Positions 882 through 51,907 of a DNA stretch of 64,000 nt are shown piece by piece. Positions within the stretch are counted from its first letter, which is position 1; every line of letters starts with the position of its first letter. Position numbers and translations under genes: made by a program. Origin of the DNA: a virus. The stretch is taken from positions 30,113-94,112 of the IMG/VR virus record IMGVR_UViG_3300009502_000025; one strand, 5' to 3'. Below the pieces are notes generated by a model. That model was not told where the DNA came from, did not search any database, and saw only the letters and a program-made list of their open reading frames with translations.

Positions 882-1145
882 ATGATGGCAATTACACTAC
901 ACGACTGGAAGACTATTCGAGAACTGAGACTATGTACTGCTGCTGGTTTATTAAATCCCATGGAATTCAAGATACTGCTAGCTCCTATGGTTTTTTTGGA
1001 TCAAGGAGACGCGGGCGATGATGAAGAGGATAGTATTGCTGACGACCTACGACAAATAAAAAAGAATAAAAAAAGCTCCTCTGAAAAAGAGGAGCTTCCA
1101 CCTGCTATAGGCTTTCATGTAGACTCAGAGGAAGAGGACGACTAA
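882..1145 (+). CDS. Hypothetical acidic small protein
   Basis: An 87-aa protein with a strong AAGGAG ribosome site eight bases before ATG. The first 40 residues look folded (MMAITLHDWKTIRELR...); the second half is highly charged, with an acidic stretch (GDAGDDEEDS), a Lys/Ser run and a terminal EEEDD. I do not recognise the family. Its last 70 bases contain the transcription terminator of the opposite-strand nrdJ operon, and its stop overlaps the end of that operon's last gene by four bases. It is transcribed divergently from the lipase. Confidence 0.6.
   Translation: MMAITLHDWKTIRELRLCTAAGLLNPMEFKILLAPMVFLDQGDAGDDEEDSIADDLRQIKKNKKSSSEKEELPPAIGFHVDSEEEDD
1056..1097 (-). terminator. Terminator of the nrdJ operon, inside the convergent gene
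   Basis: A perfect 10-bp stem (1073-1082 with 1088-1097) with a five-base loop. On the minus strand it is followed by a T-rich run (complement of 1056-1072), so it terminates leftward transcription about 45 bases after the nrdJ stop. On the plus strand there is no T run. Confidence 0.75.
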
Positions 1146-2734
1146 CATTTTGACCATCCACACATACACGTGACACATCCCTCTTTATACATAAAGCCAT
1201 CTTTACTACCACAAGAGGGACATTCCATAGATGTCTTTACTTGCTCGCCGTTCTTGATGTATCCTTTAAGAACTCTCGCTAAGGATTTTGACCAGGAACC
1301 GAAACCATCGCTTTTACCTAGCTGTTCAACGATGAACTCGATAGGTGTTCCGTGCCTCAGAGCTGTACTCAGTAGACGCGTTGGTCCTTCGTACTCGTGA
1401 TTGAATGTTTGGGCAATATTCTCAATTACGACCTTATCTACTCCGTTAGGAATAATGAGGTCGTAATTGCCTTTGCCCTTCTTACGAATGATACCTGTGT
1501 CTTTATCCTTTAGATAACTCCATTCTTCTCTTTGTTCAGATATGAATGTCTCATATATGGATCCGCTGTACTTGCCGATTAGAGTTAGAAACTTTTGTCC
1601 CTTAATAGAAGTGACATAAATATCACACTCCAAGTCCTTAGGTCTTTTTGGCGCACCAGACCTCTCAATGTACTCAGGTCTCTTATAGCATACTTCTTTC
1701 TTCACTGGCTTAGTAGATAATATTCCCTTCATACTTCCCTGTGGATTAAATGAAGTGAATCCTTTTAAGCCTTGCTTATAAGCAAACATGAAAAGATCTT
1801 TATAGGCCTCCAAAGTATATCCTTCGGGTAGGTTAGCTGTCTTAGATATAGAGTGATCTATGTATTTTTGAAAAGCAGCCTGTACTCTTACCCCATCATA
1901 AGGATTCACTTCATTTGAAGTTATGAAGTACTCGGGAATTTTAGGTTCAAGCCCCGTCGATGTCATATGTGCTTTTGTATCATCGTAAGGGGTGTGAAGA
2001 TATTCTAGCCAGGCCTTATCATACACAGTTTCTTTACGAGTCTCGTCTCCTTTTCCCGTCCTGATAGTTCTATCATACTGGAGAGCAAAGATGGGCTCAA
2101 TACCTGAAGAGCAATTATTACCAACTGTCAATGAAATTGTTCCTGTTGGCGCACAAGTTAATATACCTATGTTCCTTAGACCACTTGCCCATATATCTTC
2201 ATATAATTCCTCGGGGAGTGAGGTAATAAAAGAAGACTGATTAAGTCTTTTATCAAATGCAGGAAAGGTACCCTTTTCTCTCGCTAACTCAGCAGATTCA
2301 CTGTATGCTTCGTCACGGAGTATTCTACCTATTCCGTCTGCAAGATCTATACTTTCTTGGCTACCGTATTTTATTTTCATCATGGCACAGACGTCACCAA
2401 AACCCGTGAAGCCTAGTCCTATCCGCCTCCACTGTTTGGAAAAATCTTCTATCCTCTTAAGAGGATATTTAGTTACATCTAAAACGTCATCAAGAAATCT
2501 AACTGCTGTGCGAATAGTTTTCGATAGAAGATCCTGATTAATCATCGGGGAATCTCCAAAAGCCCCTGTCACAAAGGAAGGTAGGTTTAAGGATCCTAGA
2601 CAGCATAAACTATATGCTGGCATCGAAATTTCGCCACAATTTTTAATAACAGTGCCATTTGCATAAAAATTATGAGTATTCTCCACTGTTATATCATATA
2701 CATCTTCGTTATCAGATGTTTCTATAATTAGCAT
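1142..2734 (-). CDS. nrdJ: Class II ribonucleotide reductase, C-terminal part with split C-intein
   Basis: The first 32 residues are a C-intein: block F (DVYDITVENTHNF) and block G ending VIKN, followed by Cys. The rest is the C-terminal RNR body, beginning CGEISMPAYSLCCLGSLN, with CAPTGTISL further on and a C-terminal Cys-rich tail (CPSCG, CVTCMCGWSKC) typical of adenosylcobalamin-dependent NrdJ. After trans-splicing with the product of the gene just upstream, the junction becomes N-P-C-G-E, the active-site motif whose Cys becomes the thiyl radical. The enzyme reduces ribonucleotides for phage DNA synthesis. AGGAG lies upstream of ATG 2734. No nrdB-like gene is visible, consistent with class II. 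Confidence 0.9.
   Translation of the reverse strand: MLIIETSDNEDVYDITVENTHNFYANGTVIKNCGEISMPAYSLCCLGSLNLPSFVTGAFGDSPMINQDLLSKTIRTAVRFLDDVLDVTKYPLKRIEDFSKQWRRIGLGFTGFGDVCAMMKIKYGSQESIDLADGIGRILRDEAYSESAELAREKGTFPAFDKRLNQSSFITSLPEELYEDIWASGLRNIGILTCAPTGTISLTVGNNCSSGIEPIFALQYDRTIRTGKGDETRKETVYDKAWLEYLHTPYDDTKAHMTSTGLEPKIPEYFITSNEVNPYDGVRVQAAFQKYIDHSISKTANLPEGYTLEAYKDLFMFAYKQGLKGFTSFNPQGSMKGILSTKPVKKEVCYKRPEYIERSGAPKRPKDLECDIYVTSIKGQKFLTLIGKYSGSIYETFISEQREEWSYLKDKDTGIIRKKGKGNYDLIIPNGVDKVVIENIAQTFNHEYEGPTRLLSTALRHGTPIEFIVEQLGKSDGFGSWSKSLARVLKGYIKNGEQVKTSMECPSCGSKDGFMYKEGCVTCMCGWSKC
2639..2734 (-). other. Split intein, C-terminal fragment (32 aa)
   Basis: Residues 1-32 of the downstream NrdJ half, ending in Asn directly before the catalytic Cys (+1) of the extein. 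The size and the DVYDITV / HNFYANG / VIKN layout match natural split C-inteins of the NrdA-2/NrdJ-1 type. Confidence 0.9.
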
Positions 2735-2761: not shown

Positions 2762-3868
2762 CTAGTCATGGATTAACTCATCAGTTGGTTGAAGGTGCTG
2801 TGCTTCTACCCATCCTCTATTTTTTGTAAGTATTTTGTGATCCGGAGTACATTTGATCTGATTGCCAGTGGAGGTATCTGTTATCCTGATTATTTTCGTA
2901 TTTTTTCTAGTGAGAAGAGCATTTGTTACTTTTTGGTATTCAGTTTGACGAGTCTCTTCGTTGAGAGACTTCGCAAATACTTCTTCCCCAGAAACTACCA
3001 ATTCTACTAAGTCCTTCATTCTTATTTTTTGATTTACGCCCTTGAAAGAAATATCTACAACGGTATCTCCTGTTACGCAAGGATTGACCGAATCTATATT
3101 AAAGGCGTACCAGCCGTTGTTATACCTATTTACTGTATCAATATTAAAGATGCCTGGTTCATTGTGCTCGAAGGCATTCTTGGCCAGGAGATCATAAAGA
3201 TACTTAGCTTTAACTATTTTATAAACTTGCCCTTCCCAAACAAGAGGCCATTCACTATCTTCTTCTACAGCCCTGATAAATTCGTCTGTGAGAACTACAG
3301 AGAGGTTGAATTGGTCTAAAGCTTTTTTCTCGTCTCCGTGTTTTACTGTAATGAACTCTTCGATGTCAGGGTGATCTATGTTCATCAGAGCAATATGAGC
3401 AGATCGACGACCTCCTCCAGTCTGTATGACTTTTGCAGACTCGTTGAATATTTTAAGGAAAGAAATAGGCCCGGATGACTTGCCTCCCTTTTTAATAGCA
3501 GCATCTTTAGGTCTCAAGTACGAAATATTAAAGCCAACGCCTCCCCCTGAAGCACTGATCATGGCATCATCGTGGAGAGCTCCGAAAATGCCCTCCATGC
3601 TATCTCCAACAGCTATAGTATAACAATTATTATAGTACTTCATTTTAGAATCCGGACGAGCATTAGCTAGGATTCTTCCACCGGGGATAAATAAGCCTTT
3701 TTCCATAATGTCAAGAAATTCGTGTTCCCACTGAGCTCTTACTTTCGGTTTTTCAGCCATCGCTATTTCAGTCGCAACACCCCTAAATACATCCTCAGGG
3801 GTTTTTTCGCCGTTAATCATATACTTCTGGCGAAAGATTTCTTCGGAGATAGATTGAGAGAACATCAT
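2762..3868 (-). CDS. nrdJ: Class II ribonucleotide reductase, N-terminal part with split N-intein
   Basis: Residues 1-263 are the RNR N-terminal domain and the start of the barrel: FIPGGRILANA, NNCYTIAVGDSMEGIF, SGGGVGFNIS, GGGRRSAH, and a final NIDSVNP. Residue 264 is Cys1 of a 105-residue N-intein that runs to the stop. Block A is CVTGDTVVDI and block B is CTPDHKILTKNRGW. Only 27 bases separate this stop from the start of the C half, with no endonuclease gene between. A GGAAGG ribosome site precedes ATG 3868. The two halves must associate and trans-splice to give active enzyme. Confidence 0.92.
   Translation of the reverse strand: MMFSQSISEEIFRQKYMINGEKTPEDVFRGVATEIAMAEKPKVRAQWEHEFLDIMEKGLFIPGGRILANARPDSKMKYYNNCYTIAVGDSMEGIFGALHDDAMISASGGGVGFNISYLRPKDAAIKKGGKSSGPISFLKIFNESAKVIQTGGGRRSAHIALMNIDHPDIEEFITVKHGDEKKALDQFNLSVVLTDEFIRAVEEDSEWPLVWEGQVYKIVKAKYLYDLLAKNAFEHNEPGIFNIDTVNRYNNGWYAFNIDSVNPCVTGDTVVDISFKGVNQKIRMKDLVELVVSGEEVFAKSLNEETRQTEYQKVTNALLTRKNTKIIRITDTSTGNQIKCTPDHKILTKNRGWVEAQHLQPTDELIHD
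2765..3079 (-). other. Split intein, N-terminal fragment (105 aa)
   Basis: It begins at Cys 3077-3079, right after extein N-P, and ends TDELIHD. It contains block A and the TxxH-type block B (CTPDH). Length and break point match known split N-inteins. Confidence 0.92.
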
Positions 3869-3907: not shown

Positions 3908-4112
3908 TGATCATCTCCTTTTTAAAGAATTTACGATAGCTCTTGAGGTAGGGCGCTAGCTTTTCGTCCATCTCCTTAAAGATAGCTGTGATTTTAGCAG
4001 CCTCCTCAGAATTCAACTTTGATAAATCGATGCCTTCGACATGAGTCTCATCATGATTCATAACAATCACCTTCCTGGGCTCGTTATGATAAGTAAACTC
4101 CATTAACTTCAT
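3903..4112 (-). CDS. Hypothetical small protein
   Basis: 69 aa with AAGGAGAG directly before ATG 4112, overlapping the end of the nucleotidyltransferase gene by four bases, so the two are probably translated together. The N-terminal part reads like a small beta sheet (FTYHNEPRKVIVMNHDETHVEGIDLSK, broken here: strand, turn, then 'GIDLS'), and the C-terminal half is a charged helix rich in Lys. I do not recognise a named family. Confidence 0.6.
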   Translation of the reverse strand: MKLMEFTYHNEPRKVIVMNHDETHVEGIDLSKLNSEEAAKITAIFKEMDEKLAPYLKSYRKFFKKEMIN

Positions 4113-4632: not shown

Positions 4633-5085
4633 ATGCCTACACCTTCTTCTATGGAATACCTTAGTTTATTATACAAGGAATTGACTCGAAAACTGGAAAC
4701 TATTCATAAATACATAGATGCCATCGACAATCAGGTCGGTGACATATACCAGTCAGCTTATGAAGGCGTTTATATCTGTAAGCGCAAGTATGAGATCGTA
4801 GAAGACTATAAAGAAACAACTCCGAAGATTCATCCTCAAACTGAGTTCGCTTTTGAGCCGAGGCCCAATAAGCCTAAAAAAGGCGACACTGGACAGGATG
4901 TTCAGGAAACTATAGAAGACCTCAACGAAGATTTGAAATCTACCTTCGCTGAGATCAATTTCCGATTCTCTAAGCAGCAAGGAAACCTAGACAACCTAGG
5001 AAAGGTCCACTTAGAGTTACAGAATATTATTAATGAAATATTCCAAAATTGGAAAACCTTAAATGGAGATGAAGACAAGTTTTAA
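4633..5085 (+). CDS. Hypothetical coiled-coil protein
   Basis: 150 aa, mostly helical and charged. Two heptad-like regions (about residues 8-65 and 90-145) flank a Pro/Lys-rich linker (PRPNKPKKGDTG). GAGGG lies upstream of ATG. Its stop overlaps the stop of the polymerase N half on the other strand. No family recognised; it could be structural or a scaffold-like protein. Confidence 0.6.
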   Translation: MPTPSSMEYLSLLYKELTRKLETIHKYIDAIDNQVGDIYQSAYEGVYICKRKYEIVEDYKETTPKIHPQTEFAFEPRPNKPKKGDTGQDVQETIEDLNEDLKSTFAEINFRFSKQQGNLDNLGKVHLELQNIINEIFQNWKTLNGDEDKF

Positions 5086-7214
5086 CGCTTAATTACCAGG
5101 GTATCTGTTTCCTTTAGATTCCTCGCCTTCACTTCTTCTGTCTTCTCACCCCTTTTAACTTTTACTGTCTCGTCGGCAAAGAATACATATTCTTTGCCGT
5201 CTTGATTTATAATGACTTCATTAATTTCAAATTCTTTATTCCTGCAGAAGACATTCCAACCCGTCGTACTATGTACATCAGCGTTAGGATCTGTTTTATA
5301 GGCCTTCAGAAGGAACGCATCATTACCGTCCAAAGCTGCGAGCCTTAGTTGAAGCCCACTATAATCCATGGTTACTAGTTTACAGTGTTCTATATCAGGT
5401 ACACTTACAATTTCTTTGACCAGATCAGATCCCAACGAATGAGATGGCAAATTCGTCCAATTAGGTTCTCGACAAGTATTGCGCCCGGTTTCCGCACCCA
5501 TGACATTATATACAGGGTGGAGTTTGGACTTACCCAGATCCTCGTGAAACTTCAAGTGTTGTCTCCAACCCATATTCGTATCTGGTAGTCCTAAGAACGT
5601 CTTCTGCAACGTCTTGTATGCTCGGAGCTTCTTAAGAATAGTCGCTTCAGGTCTTCCCAATTGTTCCCACTGAGTTAACTGCTCGTCGCCTGTTAAATAA
5701 TAGCCAGACTTAGACATACCACAATTTTCCCACCCAAGCCACTTAAGTATTTCACCTAATTGCTTACCACTATTAAAATTAGACTCGGGGTCATCTTCAT
5801 CCGCGCAATCATCAAAGAAGCTATGAAAATCTAGACTCATTACCTTTAGTCCATGGCCGCCTAAGAATTCTTGTACCTTCAGCTTCTCGCTCAATTCTCT
5901 TTGAAGATCCTTCATCTCCTTATCTACATCGAGAGAATTCTTATCCCAAATATCCATGTCTACTTCGATACCCTGTATTTCAACAGGCACAAACATTTTC
6001 ATCGCTGGCATTCTTTTCTTTTCAAAGTACTCGCGCACAGTCCACCAACCCTCTACAGGCGGAGGCCAAGCGAGGTCAATCCAGTTTATTCTTTTCTCCA
6101 TCGCTTCATACACCTGGAAATTAATGATAGCGTCCATAGTCGCGTATTGTGATAAGATTTTTTCAGGTATGTCCAAGTACGTCTTTGGATTGTATCTTTT
6201 TTTATAGTCGTCTAAGTCTCTATCATAACCTCCAAATTGCGTATAATAGAAAGCTAAAGACTTCAAACTATTAGATCGAGACTCATTCAAAGTCTGTGCC
6301 ATGGGTAGAGTATCAATATCAATTTTCGCTGTAGATATGCCTGCATTCAAAAGAAACTTGACATCGAATTTTAAATTTTGTCCTATCTGGATCTTATTTC
6401 TAAAAAACTCGGTAAGTAGATTCTTATCTATTAGATACCAGGGAATATAGAAGCCTTCCCTGCCATCAAAAGACATCGTAATGCAACCTATGCGGTCATT
6501 AACAAAATCAAACCCTGATGTTTCCAAGTCCCAGCATACCTTACATGATACGGGAGTCCAAGCTTTAAGAAAATTATCAGCCTCATCTGCTTCCATAAGC
6601 TTGGTTATTTTTAAGCGCGTGGGACAAGGAGGTTCACTCAAGCCATCGTAATTTTTTAAAATCTTTTTGATTTGTATTTCTGCGAAATGCATTCTAAAAG
6701 AATCTCTGGGCAAAATTCCCATTGGAGTTATTTTAAATATGTCTTCTAGAGCGTCAATAGGAAATACGTTACACTCATATTCTCTCGAGTAAAAGTATGT
6801 TTGCGTGAACACTATGTCATAAAAACTATTTATGTGAATATTAGAATCGCCGGTTATACCATAAATGGCACGACCGGACGTTATCATGATAGTCTTGTCT
6901 GTCATGTATGAAAGAATATTCGCTGCGTTTCTCTTATAGTACTCCGCGACTCCCTCTTTTTTTATCTCTTCTGAAGTCTTGCTGTACTTCGAAAGACTCA
7001 CAATTCTATAATTGTAGCCTTGAGGTATCTGCCTGTCTAACCATTTTGTAAAGGCATCCAAGTGCCTTTGATTAGGGAATGTCTCTAAGACAATAATGAG
7101 ATGAGTCTCATCGTTACTATGAGCTCTCTCGTACAGAAGAGCTCCTTTTGTTTCCAAGCCGCTCCCCTTTTTAGAAGAGCCTAAAGATACATCGCCGAAT
7201 GTGAATGCTGCCAT
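5082..7214 (-). CDS. polA: DNA polymerase family A, N-terminal half (exonuclease plus motif A) with intein-like tail
   Basis: 710 aa. Residues 1-about 190 are not recognised. The 3'-5' exonuclease follows with Exo I (CWDLETSGF), Exo II (IGQNLKFDVKF) and Exo III (YATMDA). The polymerase domain starts with TGRNTCREPNWTNLP and motif A at D617 (DYSGLQLRLAA), then DVHSTTGWNVF. After Cys657 a 54-residue tail resembles the second half of an N-intein and ends KARNLKETDTLVIKR. Motifs B and C are absent and lie at 45401-46198. Motif A has Gln where family A normally has the steric-gate Glu. The start has no ribosome site; TATAAT lies five bases before ATG. Confidence 0.88.
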   Translation of the reverse strand: MAAFTFGDVSLGSSKKGSGLETKGALLYERAHSNDETHLIIVLETFPNQRHLDAFTKWLDRQIPQGYNYRIVSLSKYSKTSEEIKKEGVAEYYKRNAANILSYMTDKTIMITSGRAIYGITGDSNIHINSFYDIVFTQTYFYSREYECNVFPIDALEDIFKITPMGILPRDSFRMHFAEIQIKKILKNYDGLSEPPCPTRLKITKLMEADEADNFLKAWTPVSCKVCWDLETSGFDFVNDRIGCITMSFDGREGFYIPWYLIDKNLLTEFFRNKIQIGQNLKFDVKFLLNAGISTAKIDIDTLPMAQTLNESRSNSLKSLAFYYTQFGGYDRDLDDYKKRYNPKTYLDIPEKILSQYATMDAIINFQVYEAMEKRINWIDLAWPPPVEGWWTVREYFEKKRMPAMKMFVPVEIQGIEVDMDIWDKNSLDVDKEMKDLQRELSEKLKVQEFLGGHGLKVMSLDFHSFFDDCADEDDPESNFNSGKQLGEILKWLGWENCGMSKSGYYLTGDEQLTQWEQLGRPEATILKKLRAYKTLQKTFLGLPDTNMGWRQHLKFHEDLGKSKLHPVYNVMGAETGRNTCREPNWTNLPSHSLGSDLVKEIVSVPDIEHCKLVTMDYSGLQLRLAALDGNDAFLLKAYKTDPNADVHSTTGWNVFCRNKEFEINEVIINQDGKEYVFFADETVKVKRGEKTEEVKARNLKETDTLVIKR
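5085..5246 (-). other. Split-intein-like tail of the polymerase N half
   Basis: Codons 657-710. The end (KARNLKETDTLVIKR-stop) aligns by eye with the end of the NrdJ N-intein (EAQHLQPTDELIHD-stop), and an upstream DGKE / ETVKVKRG stretch occupies the block B region. A normal block A is missing and the whole piece is about half the usual length, so it may be a degenerate or atypical intein. Confidence 0.4.
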
Positions 7215-42539: not shown

Positions 42540-42546
42540 ACTAATT
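42540..42546 (+). promoter_or_regulatory. ACTAATT motif before the 42554 gene
   Basis: Only seven bases separate ACTAATT from ATG 42554; no ribosome site. Confidence 0.45.
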
Positions 42547-42553
42547 TGGAACG

Positions 42554-42997
42554 ATGTACCAAAACCCCAGAACTCTATTTCAGCAGCGTATAAATGGTCT
42601 TCTAAAAGATCCGGAATGTTCTCCTATGTTTGAGGATATCTTTAAATTGCTGCAGTTATATGCCTTAGAAAAATTAACGCCCAATAAGCCTGATGAGTCA
42701 AACTGGAAAACTCTGTTGCTTATGTACGAAGAACTAGGCCCATCTGGGATGGCTAAGCTCGTGTCCTTGGCTAAAGGCAAAGCCATAACTTTCCCTACAG
42801 AAGAAGAGTTTCAAGACTCTGTAATAACTACTTTAAGTTATTACTATAAGGAAGTAGAGAATAAGAATTGGGACGAAATTAAAAAGATACTGAATCAGCC
42901 GGATCTGAATACTATTAAGTTCGGCATTCGCGTACGGAATTTCTCGACGTTTATAAATGAACAGTTGTTGAAAAAATTCAAGAAGGTAGAAATATGA
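42554..42997 (+). CDS. Hypothetical helical protein
   Basis: 147 aa, helical and acidic in the middle (EDIFKLLQLYALEKL; TEEEFQDSVITTLSYYYKEVE), with a basic C-terminus (LLKKFKKVEI). It overlaps the next gene by four bases. No family recognised. Confidence 0.6.
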   Translation: MYQNPRTLFQQRINGLLKDPECSPMFEDIFKLLQLYALEKLTPNKPDESNWKTLLLMYEELGPSGMAKLVSLAKGKAITFPTEEEFQDSVITTLSYYYKEVENKNWDEIKKILNQPDLNTIKFGIRVRNFSTFINEQLLKKFKKVEI

Positions 42998-43470
42998 AAA
43001 ACAAAGATTTAGAGGACGCAAAAAACATGTTAACTGCTACGTTGGTGGAATCCACTAAAACACCAACCTTATACGACCCTTCTACAGAAGTAGAGAGATC
43101 ATTATCTAGCTTTCTTCAACATAGGCTGACCAAATTGCAGGAGGACGCTTCAAGAGAAGAAACTATATGGGAGGCTATAACAGAGAGAGTCTCTGAGTTC
43201 AATCCTGATCAGCTAATGAGGCTTCTAAATATTCTACAAGAGAATAGTAACTCAGGCGTTGAAAAAATCCTGAGTCCTTTCATTCCGAGAGCAGGGGAAA
43301 GAATTCCCCTCTTGCCTGACAACTCAAAGAAGAGTAAGGATATCGTCGAAGAGACAATATTCAATGAGTCTGGTAAAGATTTGATGGAGGCCTTTTCCGA
43401 ATTGAACTCCCTAGTGAGGGAAATGGCTAAGACAAGAGAAACTGAGGATATAAAGAAAGTACTGTCGTAA
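42994..43470 (+). CDS. Hypothetical coiled-coil protein
   Basis: 158 aa with AAGGTAG before ATG. Helical and charged (SSFLQHRLTKLQEDASREET; DQLMRLLNILQENSNSGVEK), with a Pro-rich link (SPFIPRAGERIPLLPDNS) near the middle. Length and helices would allow a small terminase or scaffold protein, but nothing in the sequence decides this. Confidence 0.55.
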   Translation: MKNKDLEDAKNMLTATLVESTKTPTLYDPSTEVERSLSSFLQHRLTKLQEDASREETIWEAITERVSEFNPDQLMRLLNILQENSNSGVEKILSPFIPRAGERIPLLPDNSKKSKDIVEETIFNESGKDLMEAFSELNSLVREMAKTRETEDIKKVLS

Positions 43471-43472
43471 AA

Positions 43473-43591
43473 TATACTTTTCTGTATCTTTAGAAAGGAG
43501 GTGATCCTAATCTAAAGGTGACGAAAATGTACAAAAATAAAAGGTAGGAATATGCTAAGAGGCTCTCTGAAAAGAGAGCCTCTTTTTTATA
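43473..43591 (+). ncRNA. Candidate small RNA with 17-base complement to the 16S rRNA 3' tail
   Basis: A TATACT box (43473-43478) is followed by TAGAAAGGAGGTGATCC (43491-43507), the exact complement of 16S rRNA 3' ends that read GGATCACCTCCTTTCTA. Only a six-codon open frame (ATG 43527, stop 43545) follows, then a terminator hairpin at 43557-43591. The whole unit would be an RNA of about 105 bases. It could sequester 30S subunits, or it may be the leader of the minimal open frame. The call is inference; the complementarity is direct observation, given that 16S ends are known. Confidence 0.3.
43557..43591 (+). terminator. Rho-independent terminator, plus strand
   Basis: A 12-bp stem (AAGAGGCTCTCT with AGAGAGCCTCTT), GAAA loop and a T run that contains the stop codon of the convergent helicase gene. 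Confidence 0.9.
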
Positions 43592-45404
43592 CACTACTCA
43601 TCTCAAATATCATCTTCGCTGTATTACGATCTAAGTACTGTTGAGTACCGAACTTTTTAGTTGTGAAGTCCTTATCTTCCAAATTCATATCTCGAACACA
43701 ATCTAAGGAGTTATCAATAATTAGGAGATAGGTGTACACCGTCTTCTGTTGCCCAATACGATGAATACGAAATATAGATTGGTTATACTCTGTATAATTC
43801 CAGGTTCTATCAAAGTAAATAGCTATATTAGCCTCAACAATAGTCACGCTGCTATTAAGAACCTGTATGCCCGCAATAAGAATATTGCGATCTTTCGAGG
43901 CTTGAAAATCTGCTATGATATCTGCCTTGAATTCATCCAGGGTCCTCCCCTTCGGTACTTTGACTTCCCCGTTGATGAGATAGGGCTGCCTCTTTTCTAA
44001 GATTACCGCCAGTTCTTGACCGACTGTAGGATGAGAGCACCATATAATAATTTTTTCGTTAGGATGCTTTTCTAAGAGATCATCCAAAGCTCCCATCTTA
44101 CAGTGATTAGAGAACTTAAATTTTTCGACCTTGCGAATAAGATTGTCTGGTAACTTTGTTTCATGGTTTAAAAGTAAGCTTGGATTATCGATGGCTAAGG
44201 AGAGATAGGGGAAAGAATTAAACACAGCTCGAGAGTCTATGCCTCCGTAAAATTCTTGTATGGCTCGTAGTTTTTCTACAACGATTCCTTGGTAGATTTC
44301 CTTCTGCTCATCAGATAGCTCCACATAAATCTTCTGTATGAAGTGCTCAGGCAACTCCAAAACGTCGTCAGCAAATCTTCGAGTAGACACTGATTTTACA
44401 ATATCAGCCATCTCTATAAGTTTATTGGGTTTGAAGTAATTGATAGCATATAAAGAAAATCTATTGCCAGTATCTGCATACTCTTGTAGCCACTCGAAGT
44501 AAGAGAAATTCTTTACTAAGGCGGGATCTAAGAACTTCAGCTGTGAGTAGTACTTCTCTTCTCTGTCTGCAGGAGTTCCTGTTGCAATGTATCTATACTG
44601 AAAGAAGGGAGCGGCAAGGTGTATGGCCTTAGATTGCCTGGCTTGAGGATTCGCGATATTATGTGATTCGTCCAGGATAATGATGCCAACATCTCCCTGA
44701 AGCCAATCTCGAAAGGGAATAGGACACTTACGATAATTCTTTGAATTGGATATCTCTTCCTGATACTCATCAGATACTAAGAGGAAAGATCGGTAGCTGC
44801 AGATGACAACATGAGATTTCACGTCGTCAAAAGGTCGCCGGTTTTTAATTCCCCCAACTCTAACATCTGATGAGTCATAGTTAGAAAATCTCCCCAGTTC
44901 TCTCTTGATATTGTAAGTGCCAGACCCTGAGGTAATGATAAGTACTTTTCTGACGTCTTTGTATTTACGGAGTAATTCAAGGGTGTTACATAGTATCCAG
45001 CTCTTCCCGGTACCTTGTTCATTAAAAAGAGCATATCGGTTGTAACTGGAGCATTTAGATAGGTCTTCGAGTTGGAAATATTCATGCGGCGCCTTCCCCA
45101 TAATGGGTTGTACTTTTAAATCATCTTTAGTAAAAGGAATTCTTTGAAATTCGATCGATCTCTTGGGAGTCTTCAATATCTCTATCTGAGACCATACTTC
45201 GTTTGTAATATAAAGTTCTTCTACGTCTCCCAAAGCGTCTATGACAGAGTCATAAACAGACGTCGGAATACACCACTGTTTACTCTTTGGTTCAAACTGA
45301 CATCGATATCTCTTATATATAGTAAGATCTGTATCGAAGGCGTTGACCGAGAATAATTGACTGGCATATATTTTATCGTCGCGAACTAGAATCTGAATGC
45401 TCAT
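43587..45404 (-). CDS. SNF2-family DNA helicase
   Basis: 605 aa. Helicase motifs in order: I NEQGTGKSW (about 126-134), II LDESHN (about 243-248), III ATGTPADR, a C-terminal IIIWCSH, and motif VI RIHRIGQQKTVYTYLL. The QxxRxxRxGQ-type motif VI is specific to SNF2-like translocases. Such proteins remodel protein-DNA complexes or stalled forks; phage versions (for example of the UvsW/UL9 group in role) help recombination. The start overlaps the stop of the polymerase C half by four bases, so the two are co-translated. Confidence 0.88.
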   Translation of the reverse strand: MSIQILVRDDKIYASQLFSVNAFDTDLTIYKRYRCQFEPKSKQWCIPTSVYDSVIDALGDVEELYITNEVWSQIEILKTPKRSIEFQRIPFTKDDLKVQPIMGKAPHEYFQLEDLSKCSSYNRYALFNEQGTGKSWILCNTLELLRKYKDVRKVLIITSGSGTYNIKRELGRFSNYDSSDVRVGGIKNRRPFDDVKSHVVICSYRSFLLVSDEYQEEISNSKNYRKCPIPFRDWLQGDVGIIILDESHNIANPQARQSKAIHLAAPFFQYRYIATGTPADREEKYYSQLKFLDPALVKNFSYFEWLQEYADTGNRFSLYAINYFKPNKLIEMADIVKSVSTRRFADDVLELPEHFIQKIYVELSDEQKEIYQGIVVEKLRAIQEFYGGIDSRAVFNSFPYLSLAIDNPSLLLNHETKLPDNLIRKVEKFKFSNHCKMGALDDLLEKHPNEKIIIWCSHPTVGQELAVILEKRQPYLINGEVKVPKGRTLDEFKADIIADFQASKDRNILIAGIQVLNSSVTIVEANIAIYFDRTWNYTEYNQSIFRIHRIGQQKTVYTYLLIIDNSLDCVRDMNLEDKDFTTKKFGTQQYLDRNTAKMIFEMSSV

Positions 45405-46198
45405 TGGAGATTATGCTCCTTGAAATATTTTCTCCAGTCTACGCCGCCTTTATAGTACTCCCCCTCACGAGGATCTGCGATAACAATATCTACTGTCAAA
45501 GGAACACCCTTCTGCCAGGGTTCCATTCTTTCAAATATTTCTTTGATCTTGGCTATCACCTCTTTCATTTCATTATCCCAGATAATGAAATCTACAGAGT
45601 CGTGAACCATACCTTGTATATAGGATTTAATATTATTGGCTTCTTTCCAGATTTGGAAATCGACCATGCAACCCATTACTTTACAAGCCTCATCATTTTG
45701 AATAGTCGTGTTGGCTAAGATATTATAAAGGCCCGCTACTTCTTTTCTATCCTCATCCTTACCTTTTAGCATAAGAACTGGCGTTCTGCGAATTGCTCCG
45801 TGGTAAGAACGAACATATCCCTGCTCCTCGCCTATCTGCTTATTACGCTCAATGCGATCAGCAAGTCCTTTATATGTCTTAAAGAATTGGTCTCGAATAT
45901 AATCAGCGACCGTAATGTAGCCCCACATTTTAGGTTCTACATCTTTATACTTCTTAGCAATATTAAATTTCTTGTCGTAGAGCTGAAATTCCTCTATGAA
46001 GTCGTCGACCTGCTCTTGCGTCCATTTTACAGATAAAGTAGTCTCGGCGAATGTTATGGAAGCCATACCGAATAAAAATCCGAAGTTAACTGCTTTCGCC
46101 ATTTGTCTGTATACATCGTAAATGTTATCTTTCTGGCGCAGTCTCTTAAATTCAATTTCTGTTATGGGCCTCATGACTTTTCTATGTGTGATTTTCAT
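45401..46198 (-). CDS. polA: DNA polymerase family A, C-terminal half (motifs B and C)
   Basis: 265 aa from ATG 46198 (281 aa if TTG 46246 is used). It carries motif B, YRQMAKAVNFGFLFGM, with the catalytic Arg, Lys and Phe, and motif C, MVHDSVDF. The end, PLTVDIVIADPREGEYYKGG, is the usual palm/thumb closing region. The exonuclease and motif A are in the other half at 5082-7214. Motif C has Ser where most family A enzymes have Glu (HDE to HDS). No C-intein motif (HN followed by Cys, Ser or Thr) is seen before residue 50. No ribosome site; TATATT lies six bases before ATG 46198. Confidence 0.88.
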   Translation of the reverse strand: MKITHRKVMRPITEIEFKRLRQKDNIYDVYRQMAKAVNFGFLFGMASITFAETTLSVKWTQEQVDDFIEEFQLYDKKFNIAKKYKDVEPKMWGYITVADYIRDQFFKTYKGLADRIERNKQIGEEQGYVRSYHGAIRRTPVLMLKGKDEDRKEVAGLYNILANTTIQNDEACKVMGCMVDFQIWKEANNIKSYIQGMVHDSVDFIIWDNEMKEVIAKIKEIFERMEPWQKGVPLTVDIVIADPREGEYYKGGVDWRKYFKEHNLQ

Positions 46199-46204
46199 AT
46201 AGAG

Positions 46205-46210
46205 AATATA
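46205..46210 (-). promoter_or_regulatory. TATATT box six bases before the polymerase C half
   Basis: Minus strand TATATTCTCTATATG. Together with the plus-strand box at 46227-46232 it forms a very compact divergent promoter of about 40 bases. Confidence 0.5.
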
Positions 46211-46226
46211 TGAATCAGCCTTTGTA

Positions 46227-46232
46227 TATATT
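46227..46232 (+). promoter_or_regulatory. TATATT box seven bases before gp46
   Basis: TATATTGGTCCATATG with no ribosome site before ATG 46240; the longer reading from 46210 would start inside the promoter and adds a non-conserved leader. Confidence 0.5.
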
Positions 46233-46239
46233 GGTCCAT

Positions 46240-48327
46240 ATGACAATACTAAAACTTGAGCTTGAAAACTTCATGAACATAGCTAAAGCCGACCTAGATT
46301 TTAAAAACGGCATAAATGTTATTTCGGGAAAAAATGGAGCAGGAAAAAGTGCTGTGCTTGAAGCTATCGCTTTCTGCATGGTTGAACGCAGAAGAGGGGA
46401 CTCTTGGAAAGACTACATCAGGTCCGGAACAACAGGATTTAAAATCCACCTACTCATACAAAAGAGTGCGGCAAAAGCGGATGTCGTTGAATTCAGATAT
46501 GAAGGTAATATAAAGCAAGGCGCGACCAGTAAGCAAATTATCTACCAGGGTAAGACCTATGTGAATTCGGAGTGCTCTGATTTTATAAAGGACACCTTTG
46601 ACTCCGAAATGTTGGAGAATATTATTTTTACCCTACAGGATAGTAAACCAGTCACTCACCAGACTCCTCTGGAGCGTAGGACCATATTTAAGAAAATATT
46701 CAATTCTAATTTCACAACCGCTGTTGAGAAAATTAAAGCGGATATTGAACAAAAAGAGGCTGAAAGCACAACCTTAGCATACGAGATAAATGCCATTAAA
46801 TCCAAAACTTATCCTAAGGTGAGATTAGAGAGTATGGATCCTCAGGAATTGAGTGTCTATCTTACAGAGCAATCTAAGATAGAAGATAAGATGAAAGAAT
46901 CTACGTTCGATAATGAATTTAATACCCTCTACCTGAGCAACCGAGAAGTCTTCGAAAAGTATGTGTTGCCTTCGTACCTAAATACTAGGGATGATGTAAC
47001 GAAGCTTGAGAAAGAAATCGGAGATTCTCTAGTGAAAACAGAATTCTGCGAACGCGACATACGAGCTGGTGAAGCACGGCTTAATACTTTAGATATAAAT
47101 ATCAGTGGGCTCAAGCTCAAAATAGAAGCTCTTGAAAAATCTCTGGACTCTGAGAGTGATTCTATAGGAGACCTTGAAAAAACTTTACAAGGTTTGAGAG
47201 CCCGTATCCGGGAAGCTCAGGTGCTTAGGTCCATCTCCAATACACATTTGGAAACACATAAGAAAGGTAAGTGCGATGCTTGTGGGCAAGATTGTGATAT
47301 AACAAGGATCCAGGAGTTAGAGACCGGGGTTAAAGTTATTTCTAGGCACATTCAGGATTTAATTTCTGATGAAAATCAGGTTACGGCCCAGCATACTTCC
47401 TGTGTAGCGCGTGTTAAAGAGATCGGTAAAACCTTAGATGACTTAAGGAATACTCTTTATCGTGAGAATGTGGGGGTCGAGAAAACAACAAAAAATCTTG
47501 AAAATAATCGACGTGAAATTACCCAGGATAGGCTATCTACGCAGAGTCTACAAACGATTTTACAAGAGAAAACAAGAGAATTATGTAGAATAGAACCCGA
47601 GGTCGATCAGAAAGAAACATGGCTCAAAGAGAACGAATCTCGATGGCAGGCCTTAGAAACTTCTGATCCAGCTATTTATGAAGAACAACTGAAAGGCATA
47701 CGCGCTAAGATTCAGGATTATAATCAAAGATTGACATCTAGGTTAGAGCGAGAAGCTTTCAACAAGAAGCTAGATGAGCAGATTCAAAAAGATTCTGACC
47801 AGGTGCAAAAGCTATCTGAGAAGATAAATACTCTAGACTTAGAAATCAAAAATCTCGAGTTCGTTAAGATGTTCTACGAGACTACGTTTCCCAATTTTAT
47901 CAACTCAAAGGCCTGTACCTTACTGGAGTCTTATATGAATAACTTCCTCAGCACAACTAAGGAGGGATTCCAATTTAAACTTTTGTCCACGAAGAAAGGT
48001 ATAGACTTTTTATATAAGGCAGACCCCGCGTCAGAATGGTTGAATGTTAAGTTAGCCTCTGGTTTTGAAACTTCGGTATCTAATCTAGCTTTTAAATGTG
48101 CCGTGGCTTTTTCATACCAGTCTGGACTTTTGGTTCTCGACGAGCCTGACGCATACAGTTCTGAGTCTAATAGCGAGCGGTTATTTGAAACCTTGACCAG
48201 TATTAACGACGGATTTGAGCAGATGATTATCATTACGCATAAGACTCAGGCTATGGAATTCTTAAAGGAGAACGGCGCCAATATTTATAAAGTTACTGAT
48301 GGAGTCTTCGAGCAATCTGCTGACTAA
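46240..48327 (+). CDS. SbcC/Rad50-like ATPase (gp46 recombination subunit)
   Basis: 695 aa. Walker A SGKNGAGKSAVLEAI (about 28-42) opens the ABC-type head. Two long coiled-coil arms meet at a zinc hook, CDACGQDC, near residue 347. The signature and Walker B are at the C-terminus (SNLAFKCAVAFSYQ; LLVLDEPDAYSSE). With gp47 it forms the nuclease complex that starts recombination-dependent replication. I chose ATG 46240 because the peptide then starts MTILKLELENFMNIAKADLD, the standard Rad50-type beginning. Confidence 0.9.
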   Translation: MTILKLELENFMNIAKADLDFKNGINVISGKNGAGKSAVLEAIAFCMVERRRGDSWKDYIRSGTTGFKIHLLIQKSAAKADVVEFRYEGNIKQGATSKQIIYQGKTYVNSECSDFIKDTFDSEMLENIIFTLQDSKPVTHQTPLERRTIFKKIFNSNFTTAVEKIKADIEQKEAESTTLAYEINAIKSKTYPKVRLESMDPQELSVYLTEQSKIEDKMKESTFDNEFNTLYLSNREVFEKYVLPSYLNTRDDVTKLEKEIGDSLVKTEFCERDIRAGEARLNTLDINISGLKLKIEALEKSLDSESDSIGDLEKTLQGLRARIREAQVLRSISNTHLETHKKGKCDACGQDCDITRIQELETGVKVISRHIQDLISDENQVTAQHTSCVARVKEIGKTLDDLRNTLYRENVGVEKTTKNLENNRREITQDRLSTQSLQTILQEKTRELCRIEPEVDQKETWLKENESRWQALETSDPAIYEEQLKGIRAKIQDYNQRLTSRLEREAFNKKLDEQIQKDSDQVQKLSEKINTLDLEIKNLEFVKMFYETTFPNFINSKACTLLESYMNNFLSTTKEGFQFKLLSTKKGIDFLYKADPASEWLNVKLASGFETSVSNLAFKCAVAFSYQSGLLVLDEPDAYSSESNSERLFETLTSINDGFEQMIIITHKTQAMEFLKENGANIYKVTDGVFEQSAD

Positions 48328-50028: not shown

Positions 50029-50044
50029 AAGAGAGGTGTCGACA

Positions 50045-51907
50045 ATGGAGTTGAATGTAGCTGAGATGTTCGGTCCCGTGCTTCAGGGAGAAGGCAAGTC
50101 TCTCGGCGAGCCAGCTTTCTTTCTGAGGCTATCGAATTGTAATCTTATGTCCATAGGGTATAATCGAGGAATTTCTCAGCCAAAGATATGGATGAATAAA
50201 GGTGGAGAGAAAAATATACAAGATGTAAAGCCTGATGATGTAATCTGGGCCACAAATGAAAACGGAAATCTCGTTGAAACAAAAGTTCTATCAGTATTCG
50301 AATACGACATCAAAGATAGAGTTGAGCTAATAGTCGAAGGGATAGATCACCCTGTTTACTGCTCAGGGGAGCACCCCTGGCTAACAAATCAAGGGTGGAA
50401 GAGAGCTGACGAGCTTCTTAAAGACGATGAAATAATGCATTTTTCTAAGAAGCAGATTCAATCAGAAAGAATGAAAAAGTATAACCCTATTCATGATCCA
50501 GATACTATGAAAAGACATATTGAAAATACGAACTGGACAACTCAGGGAGAAAAAATTAAAGGTGATATTCAAAGAAGGAAAGCTGCAGACACTTATGTAG
50601 ACGCCGTTACTTCCATGAGACGCAATAATCCAGAAAAGTATGCAGAGATGAATAAAAATACCTCAGTAAGAATGACAACTAATAATCCAATGTTTAATCA
50701 GGAAGTAGTTAAAAAAAGTAGAGGGACCCACCAGAATATAAATCAATATTACCCCTTTATGTCCAAATCAGAGAAAGATTTTTCTAATATTGCTATGAAA
50801 ATGGGGCTGCCAGTTAAGTATATTGGAAGATTTGATCTTCAGATTAAACACAAGAGTAAAACATACTACCCTGATTTTATAATTGAGGGGACAAATAGAC
50901 TTCTGGAAATATACTACTCAAAAGGGAAATTATATTCTCACAGGAATGAACAGTGGAAAAAAGAAAGGCTGGAGGCCTTCGAGGCTAATGGCTATTCCTG
51001 CACGTTTGTAAATTGTTCCGAGAGCAATATTAATGATATTAAAGATTTAATATCCACCGAAATAAAAATGCAGAACGGGGTAAAGATTATATCTGTAACA
51101 AAAGTTAATCAATTTAAAACCCATTATGAGGGAGAAAAATCGTTATCTAATTCCGATACCCAGTTCAATATTACCACTAAGCCGATGAGAGCAATTGATA
51201 TTATGTGTTACCCTTATCATAATTTCATAGTTGATGGAATGGTTACGCATAATTGCGGCGGTCATAACGGTGAGAAAGTTCGCGATGGGTCCGCTACTTG
51301 GTGGTGTGACTCTGAAAAGATTTGGCGAGAAAGTAAATCGTATACTCCTGGTGAAATTATTGAATATATTAAGGACGCGGGTGAGCTTGATAATATTAGA
51401 TCTGGATCTACTCACTTAGTTATTACTGGCGGCGAGCCTCTCTTACGCAGGAATATCGATCCGCTAAAACTACTTATTGAAATGCTGAGGTATGATAATC
51501 TCGCAGATCAGACATTCTATCCTTATATTGAGGTTGAGACGAACGGCACTTGCTCAACAGAAGACTTCTTGGATACGTATGTTGATCAGGTTAATTGTAG
51601 CCCTAAACTAGCTAATAGTGGTGTGCCTCGAGAGCAAAGAATTAAGCAGGATGCTATTGAGGAGATAAAGAATCATCTTAACTCTTGGTTCAAATTCGTT
51701 GTTAGCAAACCTGAAGATTGGAATGAGATCGAGAAAGATTTCTTGCCACTTATATTTAAGGATCAGATCATACTGATGCCTGCGGGAGCATCTCGCGAGG
51801 ATCTTTTAGTTACGAGTCCTATTGTATGGGAGATGGCTTGCAAGCATAACGTCAAGGCTACAACAAGACTGCAGACCATAACTTGGGATAAGAGAGTTGG
51901 CGTATGA
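50045..51907 (+). CDS. queE: QueE-like radical SAM enzyme (7-carboxy-7-deazaguanine synthase) interrupted by an intein
   Basis: The host protein parts are residues 1-35 (NVAEMFGPVLQGEGKSLGEP; FLRLSNCNLM) and 404-end (CGGHNG...WWCDSE; VITGGEPLL; VETNGT; CSPKL; TTRLQTITWD). Joined they restore CNLMCGG...WWC, the iron-sulphur Cys set of QueE. Between them is a 368-residue intein with a nuclease domain. QueE makes CDG from carboxy-tetrahydropterin for queuosine or phage 7-deazaguanine DNA modification. ATG 50045 follows GAGAGGTG. No other genes of the pathway are in the window. ATGA overlap with the next gene. Confidence 0.85.
   Translation: MELNVAEMFGPVLQGEGKSLGEPAFFLRLSNCNLMSIGYNRGISQPKIWMNKGGEKNIQDVKPDDVIWATNENGNLVETKVLSVFEYDIKDRVELIVEGIDHPVYCSGEHPWLTNQGWKRADELLKDDEIMHFSKKQIQSERMKKYNPIHDPDTMKRHIENTNWTTQGEKIKGDIQRRKAADTYVDAVTSMRRNNPEKYAEMNKNTSVRMTTNNPMFNQEVVKKSRGTHQNINQYYPFMSKSEKDFSNIAMKMGLPVKYIGRFDLQIKHKSKTYYPDFIIEGTNRLLEIYYSKGKLYSHRNEQWKKERLEAFEANGYSCTFVNCSESNINDIKDLISTEIKMQNGVKIISVTKVNQFKTHYEGEKSLSNSDTQFNITTKPMRAIDIMCYPYHNFIVDGMVTHNCGGHNGEKVRDGSATWWCDSEKIWRESKSYTPGEIIEYIKDAGELDNIRSGSTHLVITGGEPLLRRNIDPLKLLIEMLRYDNLADQTFYPYIEVETNGTCSTEDFLDTYVDQVNCSPKLANSGVPREQRIKQDAIEEIKNHLNSWFKFVVSKPEDWNEIEKDFLPLIFKDQIILMPAGASREDLLVTSPIVWEMACKHNVKATTRLQTITWDKRVGV
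50150..51253 (+). mobile_element. Intein with Vsr-like (PD-(D/E)xK / EDxHD-type) endonuclease domain
   Basis: 368 codons from Ser (50150) to Asn (51251-51253), followed by extein Cys. N-terminal splicing block B is GEHPWLTNQGWKRADEL; C-terminal blocks are DIMCYPYHNFIVDG and VTHN. The middle (about intein residues 200-300) reads MSKSEKDFSNIAMKMGLPV, then YYPDFIIEGTNRLLEIYYSK and a long basic helix ending GYSCTFVN: the strand-rich PD...E layout of Vsr-like homing nucleases. It uses Ser1, not Cys1. Probably able to splice; activity cannot be judged from sequence. Confidence 0.8.

What the first reader, a model, noticed from the sequence alone, without database searches (positions are those of the whole stretch)
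43473..43591. Possible phage small RNA complementary to the 3' end of 16S rRNA
TAGAAAGGAGGTGATCC is a 17-base perfect complement of the 16S tail GGATCACCTCCTTTCTA, far longer than any normal ribosome site. It has no substantial gene behind it: only a six-codon frame and then a terminator. A TATACT box lies upstream. A transcript of about 105 bases could bind and hold 30S subunits, or block initiation on host mRNAs. The sequence also hints that the host 16S ends in CCTTTCTA.
Basis: partly seen in the sequence, partly recalled or inferred. Interest (0 to 1): 0.75.

Follow-up and report, generated by a model that had tools for sequence, protein, structure and literature searches.

The report
Gene-less extended ribosome site in phage 3'UTR
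A 170-kb bacterial virus carries, just after the last gene of a short operon, a 17-letter perfect complement of the ribosome's 16S RNA tail with no properly spaced gene behind it; the sequence is real and unlikely by chance, but nothing shows that it is a separate small RNA, and its function is unproven.

Summary
TAGAAAGGAGGTGATCC (43491-43507) is exact, occurs once in the complete 170-kb circular phage genome, and is an outlier: the next longest 16S-tail complement is 11 nt, gene starts use at most 8, and extrapolated chance is about 2e-4 per genome. No start codon lies at working distance (GTG 16 nt and ATG 25 nt after GGAGG; genuine sites with the same 16-mer have mostly 6-11).

The TATACT box has no -35 and is not enriched before genes in this phage. 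The phage's likely promoter motif, ACTAATT (35 of 172 genes, 3.2 expected), is absent here but sits before the two-gene unit upstream. The site is therefore most simply the 3'UTR of that mRNA, ending at the terminator 43557-43588, between convergent genes.

New: the site is embedded in a long hairpin (-17.6 kcal/mol) with GGUGA exposed in the loop; the duplex with the 16S tail (-31.1) would win.

Best reading: a gene-less extended Shine-Dalgarno that docks 30S subunits at an mRNA's 3' end, like a displaced STAB-SD. Rivals: a translation signal for a tiny frame (MYKNKR), chance, or a trans-acting 30S trap. No relative of the element or its neighbours was found, so conservation is untested.

The parts
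43491..43507 (+). 17-nt perfect complement of the 16S tail GGATCACCTCCTTTCTA (extended Shine-Dalgarno without a gene)
   Evidence: Exact and unique in window and genome; extrapolated chance about 2e-4 per genome
43475..43531 (+). Hairpin around the site: outer stem 43475-43482/43523-43531, middle stem 43485-43494/43511-43520, inner AGGA 43496-43499/UCCU 43505-43508, loop GGUGA 43500-43504
   Evidence: MFE -17.6 kcal/mol, z -3.5, 0 of 200 shuffles; with the 17-mer held fixed and flanks shuffled, 25 of 5000 fold as well
43557..43588 (+). Intrinsic terminator, 12-bp stem, 4-nt loop, T run; + strand only
   Evidence: fold
43471..43588 (+). Inferred 118-nt 3'UTR of the two-gene transcript that covers 42554-43470
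   Evidence: Gene order, no promoter here, terminator; transcript itself inferred
43527..43547 (+). Six-codon frame MYKNKR (in-frame GTG at 43518 gives MTKMYKNKR); ATG 25 nt after GGAGG; own weak SD-like AAAGGTGA at 43514-43521
   Evidence: sequence
42540..42546 (+). ACTAATT promoter-like motif in front of the two-gene unit
   Evidence: motif in 35 of 172 upstream regions, 3.2 expected; 14 nt before the 147-aa gene
42554..42997 (+). 147-aa phage protein, unknown function
   Evidence: weak match to phrog_5945
42994..43470 (+). 158-aa phage protein, unknown function; its stop codon is 20 nt before the site
   Evidence: no family match
43587..45404 (-). Convergent SNF2-type helicase; its stop codon overlaps the terminator's T run
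   Evidence: PF00176, PF00271; phrog_62

Best explanation
It is a gene-less extended Shine-Dalgarno site in the 3'UTR of a two-gene phage mRNA (genes 42554-43470, terminator to 43588), displayed in a hairpin. The exposed loop GGUGA can nucleate on UCACC of the 16S tail; the hairpin then opens into a 17-bp duplex, docking a 30S subunit near the mRNA's 3' end without productive initiation. The most likely consequence is local: the docked 30S and the terminator shield the transcript end from nucleases, or leave a stable 3' fragment. Shown: the sequence, its rarity, the lack of a spaced start codon, predicted hairpin and duplex energies, and the terminator. Inferred: transcription from upstream, 30S docking, and the protective effect.
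For: Exact 17-mer, a strong outlier. No start codon in range: 16 and 25 nt after GGAGG here, while sites sharing the 16-mer that precede ORFs have starts mostly 6-11 nt after GGAGG; the published distance from the 16S 3' end to the start in B. subtilis is 13-24 nt (PMC5427494), here 27 and 36. Hairpin with exposed GGUGA loop; duplex -31.1 versus hairpin -17.6 kcal/mol. 3'UTR placement: promoter-like motif upstream of the two genes and none at the site. Precedent: strong SDs without a start codon stabilise Bacillus mRNAs (review PMC3997798). The 16-mer is about 10-fold commoner in viral DNA than a permuted control (91 versus 9 stretches), and some hits elsewhere also lack an obvious ORF.
Against: No relative carries it: neighbouring genes match only the same virus and a scan for the loop sequence finds only coding, RBS or unrelated sites. 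Known STAB-SD sites are in 5' leaders; at a 3' end only about 80 nt lie downstream. AGGA of the core is paired in the predicted fold. The hairpin is only moderately significant given the core (25 of 5000). Many of the other 16-mer hits are coding (RKEVI), so the enrichment is not specific to gene-less sites. No RNA or ribosome data.
Confidence: 0.35

Rival explanations
1. It is a translation signal for a very short frame, live or decayed: MYKNKR or MTKMYKNKR, with the long site acting as a standby site or as the leftover ribosome site of a lost gene; if live, it could act like a lambda bar-type minigene that causes peptidyl-tRNA drop-off.
For: Tiny frames behind the same 16-mer occur in other phages, e.g. 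MAKGKGKGKGGKC in L057/L065 with 7-nt spacing. AAAGG at 43514-43518 is well placed for ATG 43527. S. aureus uses extended SDs and many unannotated small ORFs (PMC13009471).
Against: Spacing from the long site to GTG or ATG is out of range. The ATG lies in the predicted outer stem. No conservation evidence.
Confidence: 0.28
2. Chance: an unselected sequence, perhaps inside a hairpin that serves as a weak terminator for the convergent helicase transcript on the - strand.
For: On the - strand the same hairpin is followed by TATATTTTACG, next to the opposite gene's stop; its T-run score (4.09 at best) is near the 4.41 scored for the tail of the + terminator. First-stage readers screen many windows, so an event of this rarity can turn up. 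No conservation found.
Against: About 2e-4 per genome (extrapolated). The - strand hairpin is AU-rich and interrupted and was not called a terminator. The 17-mer occurs in 20 viral stretches against 0 for the reversed control, though that control contains CTAG, which is often rare in bacterial DNA.
Confidence: 0.27
3. One reading: a free-standing phage small RNA of about 105 nt that binds 30S subunits in trans and holds them or blocks host initiation.
For: A 17-bp duplex of -31.1 kcal/mol with the whole free 16S tail; compact fold with terminator (z -6.2 for 43471-43588, partly due to the terminator); no gene.
Against: No promoter: none called at the site, TATACT not enriched, ACTAATT absent. 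Titrating abundant 30S subunits needs very high RNA levels and would hurt the phage's own translation, which uses the same SDs. No Rfam match at threshold. My literature searches turned up no such phage RNA.
Confidence: 0.08
4. The - strand sequence is a captured piece of a ribosomal RNA operon (16S 3' end plus the first bases of the spacer), for instance a recombination or attachment remnant.
For: On the - strand the match runs past the mature 16S end: TCACCTCCTTTCTAAAGATA occurs at the 16S-spacer junction of eight Acidobacteria and Chloroflexi MAGs.
Against: The match ends within the 16S tail on one side and a few bases into the spacer on the other, with no further homology; the spacer-like bases also belong to the hairpin arm.
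Confidence: 0.02

Closest known systems
STAB-SD of Bacillus thuringiensis cryIIIA (cry3A) and related 5' stabilisers (review PMC3997798)
   Same: A strong Shine-Dalgarno without an associated start codon, thought to affect RNA stability through ribosome binding
   Different: Known ones are near the 5' end and protect a long downstream mRNA; this one is in a 3'UTR, is 17 nt, and sits in a hairpin; host unknown
Extended SD sites of Staphylococcus aureus and Bacillus (PMC13009471, PMC5427494)
   Same: Pairing with 16S tail nucleotides beyond the CCUCC core
   Different: Those place a start codon in the P site; here no start codon is in range
Lambda bar minigenes
   Same: SD plus a very short frame in phage RNA
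   Different: bar has a two-codon frame at normal spacing (own knowledge); here the spacing is wrong and the frame has six codons

Membership tests
STAB-SD mRNA stabiliser | Strong SD complementary to the 16S tail without an associated start codon | tested here: met
   17-nt complement, starts at 16 and 25 nt after GGAGG, out of range
STAB-SD mRNA stabiliser | Located in the 5' leader or at a processed 5' end of the mRNA it protects | tested here: not met
   Lies after the last gene, 81 nt before the end of the terminator
STAB-SD mRNA stabiliser | 30S binding blocks 5'-3' exonuclease | not testable with these tools
   needs RNA half-life and toeprint data
Ordinary ribosome binding site | Start codon at working distance with an ORF | tested here: not met
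Stand-alone phage small RNA | Own promoter | tested here: not met
   No sigma-70-like promoter, no ACTAATT motif, TATACT not enriched; an unusual promoter cannot be excluded
Stand-alone phage small RNA | Own terminator and stable fold | tested here: met
Any Rfam family | Score above gathering threshold | tested here: not met
   none in window; best sub-threshold Phe_leader 26.4 against 55 bits
Lambda bar-type minigene | SD at normal spacing to a very short frame | tested here: inconclusive
   The long site is too far; the weak AAAGGTGA site is correctly spaced to a six-codon frame

The most novel reading that the evidence does not exclude
A phage RNA element that displays a complement of the entire free 16S tail in a hairpin and captures 30S subunits, either in cis at an mRNA's 3' end or in trans after release as a 3'UTR-derived RNA.
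Probability: 0.12. Interest if true: 0.75.

Novelty: new variant of a known kind. Interest (0 to 1): 0.32.

Why it matters
If it docks 30S subunits, it would extend the idea of start-less Shine-Dalgarno sites from 5' leaders to 3'UTRs and give a phage a simple way to protect or process late transcripts, or to touch host initiation. If it does not, it is a useful warning that a long perfect 16S complement alone does not make a small RNA.

Tried and rejected
Relatives via helicase, 158-aa protein and RNR in viral contigs: only the same virus, apart from two RNR relatives at 33-44% identity. DNA similarity to known phages: nothing significant. tblastn of two structural proteins: none. A second, imperfect copy of the site in the window (3908-3924, -) is the 3' end of a coding sequence (...FFKKEMIN) and was dismissed. 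TAG read-through making a longer protein from the six-codon frame: a CTA-anticodon tRNA is present, but TAG ends 14 long genes, so not adopted. The 30-aa frame 43552-43644 runs through the terminator and antisense to the helicase; dismissed. A phage bS21, which would fit Bacteroidota-type regulation of extended SDs: not found. Rfam on the region and on parallel loci: nothing relevant. Loop-sequence scan for hairpin homologues: coding, RBS or unrelated sites only.

Full report
Check of the observation. The 17-mer TAGAAAGGAGGTGATCC lies at 43491-43507 on the + strand, 20 nt after the stop of a 158-aa gene. It is the exact complement of GGATCACCTCCTTTCTA, the free tail of many bacterial 16S RNAs. 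It is unique in the window and in the whole phage genome. The window lies in a 94-kb record; a second record of 170,592 bases is 99.999-100% identical over all shared sequence and closes by a 127-base end overlap to a 170,465-bp circle. Against the genome's own background the 17-mer is an outlier: the next longest match is 11 nt, and an order-3 Markov model extrapolates to about 2e-4 such sites per genome. Genes of this phage do use Shine-Dalgarno sites (AAAGGAG, GAGGTGA), but with at most 8 contiguous matches among 141 genes tested.

Is it a ribosome site? In viral contigs the 17-mer occurs in 20 stretches and the 16-mer AGAAAGGAGGTGATCC in 91, against 0 for the reversed 17-mer and 9 for a permuted 16-mer. 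The hits are mostly coding (peptide RKEVI) or true ribosome sites; sites in front of ORFs have their start mostly 6-11 nt after GGAGG; a minority have no obvious gene. At our site the nearest starts are 16 nt (GTG 43518) and 25 nt (ATG 43527) away, out of range also by the published distance rule. So it is not an ordinary ribosome site for the six-codon frame, although that frame has its own weak SD-like sequence.

Is it a separate small RNA? The TATACT box has no -35 and the promoter scan finds nothing there. TATACT is not enriched before genes in this phage (10 seen, 10.1 expected). A different motif is: ACTAATT in 35 of 172 upstream regions, 3.2 expected, most often 11-50 nt before the start. 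It precedes the 147-aa gene at about 42540, just after a terminator-like hairpin, and is missing at the site. The simplest transcript therefore starts near 42540, covers the 147-aa and 158-aa genes and ends at the + terminator 43557-43588, so the site is in its 3'UTR. That the motif is a promoter is an inference.

Structure. The region 43475-43531 folds into a long hairpin of -17.6 kcal/mol; with the 17-mer fixed and the flanks shuffled, 25 of 5000 shuffles fold as well. GGUGA (43500-43504) is in the loop, AGGA is paired with UCCU, and UAGA is in the stem. A duplex with the 16S tail is worth -31.1 kcal/mol, so strand invasion from the loop is favourable. On the - strand the same hairpin is followed by a modest T run and could be a weak terminator of the helicase transcript.

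Match beyond the mature 16S end. On the - strand the sequence continues as TTTCTAAAGATA, found at the 16S-spacer junction of eight Acidobacteria and Chloroflexi MAGs. A pre-16S beginning AAGGATA (Bacillus type, own knowledge) would pair with one G-U. This is as likely a by-product of the hairpin arm as a signal, and it does not identify the host.

Comparative evidence is the main gap. The helicase and the 158-aa protein find only the same virus in viral contigs, and RNR adds only two relatives at 33-44% identity; known phages give only distant helicase and polymerase relatives and no match for two structural proteins.

Verdict. The most economical functional reading is a start-less extended Shine-Dalgarno in a 3'UTR that docks a 30S subunit, resembling the STAB-SD of Bacillus leaders in kind (PMC3997798) but not in place. 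A tiny-frame signal and plain chance are close rivals; the trans-acting 30S trap is possible but the least supported of the functional readings.

Noticed in passing
window 2762-3868 (-) and 1142-2734 (-): Ribonucleotide reductase large subunit in two neighbouring genes with the two halves of an intein at the junction (PF14890 positions 6-93 at the end of the first, 128-155 at the start of the second): a likely trans-splicing split intein.
   Followed up: partly
window 5082-7214 (-) and 45401-46246 (-): Family A DNA polymerase in two genes about 38 kb apart, breaking within the polymerase domain (PF00476 29-198 and 237-376); no intein match at the break.
   Followed up: partly
upstream of 35 of 172 genes in G001; e.g. 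window 42540-42546: Phage-wide motif (G/T/C)ACTAATTA, about 11-fold enriched before genes, a candidate phage-specific promoter element.
   Followed up: partly
G001 71461-90261 and 95716-95791 (L028, L029): 26 tRNA genes, among them one with a CTA anticodon called as tRNA-Pyl, while TAG still ends 14 long genes.
   Followed up: no
L026:4921-7050 (-): RecA/UvsX-type gene interrupted by a LAGLIDADG homing-endonuclease domain, probably a full intein.
   Followed up: no
L051, L053, L072, L077, L098 around AGAAAGGAGGTGATCC: In an unrelated phage group, a conserved intergenic element of about 120 nt: terminator, palindrome GTTGCGATATCGCAAC, the same 16-mer, a conserved stretch ending in GCCTCC, then a terminator-like end; tiny conserved frame or RNA, no Rfam match.
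   Followed up: partly
L057 and L065: A 13-residue frame MAKGKGKGKGGKC behind a perfect extended SD with correct spacing in other phage contigs.
   Followed up: no
window 50036-51907 (+): 623-aa protein with a QueE-like radical SAM domain at its C terminus.
   Followed up: no
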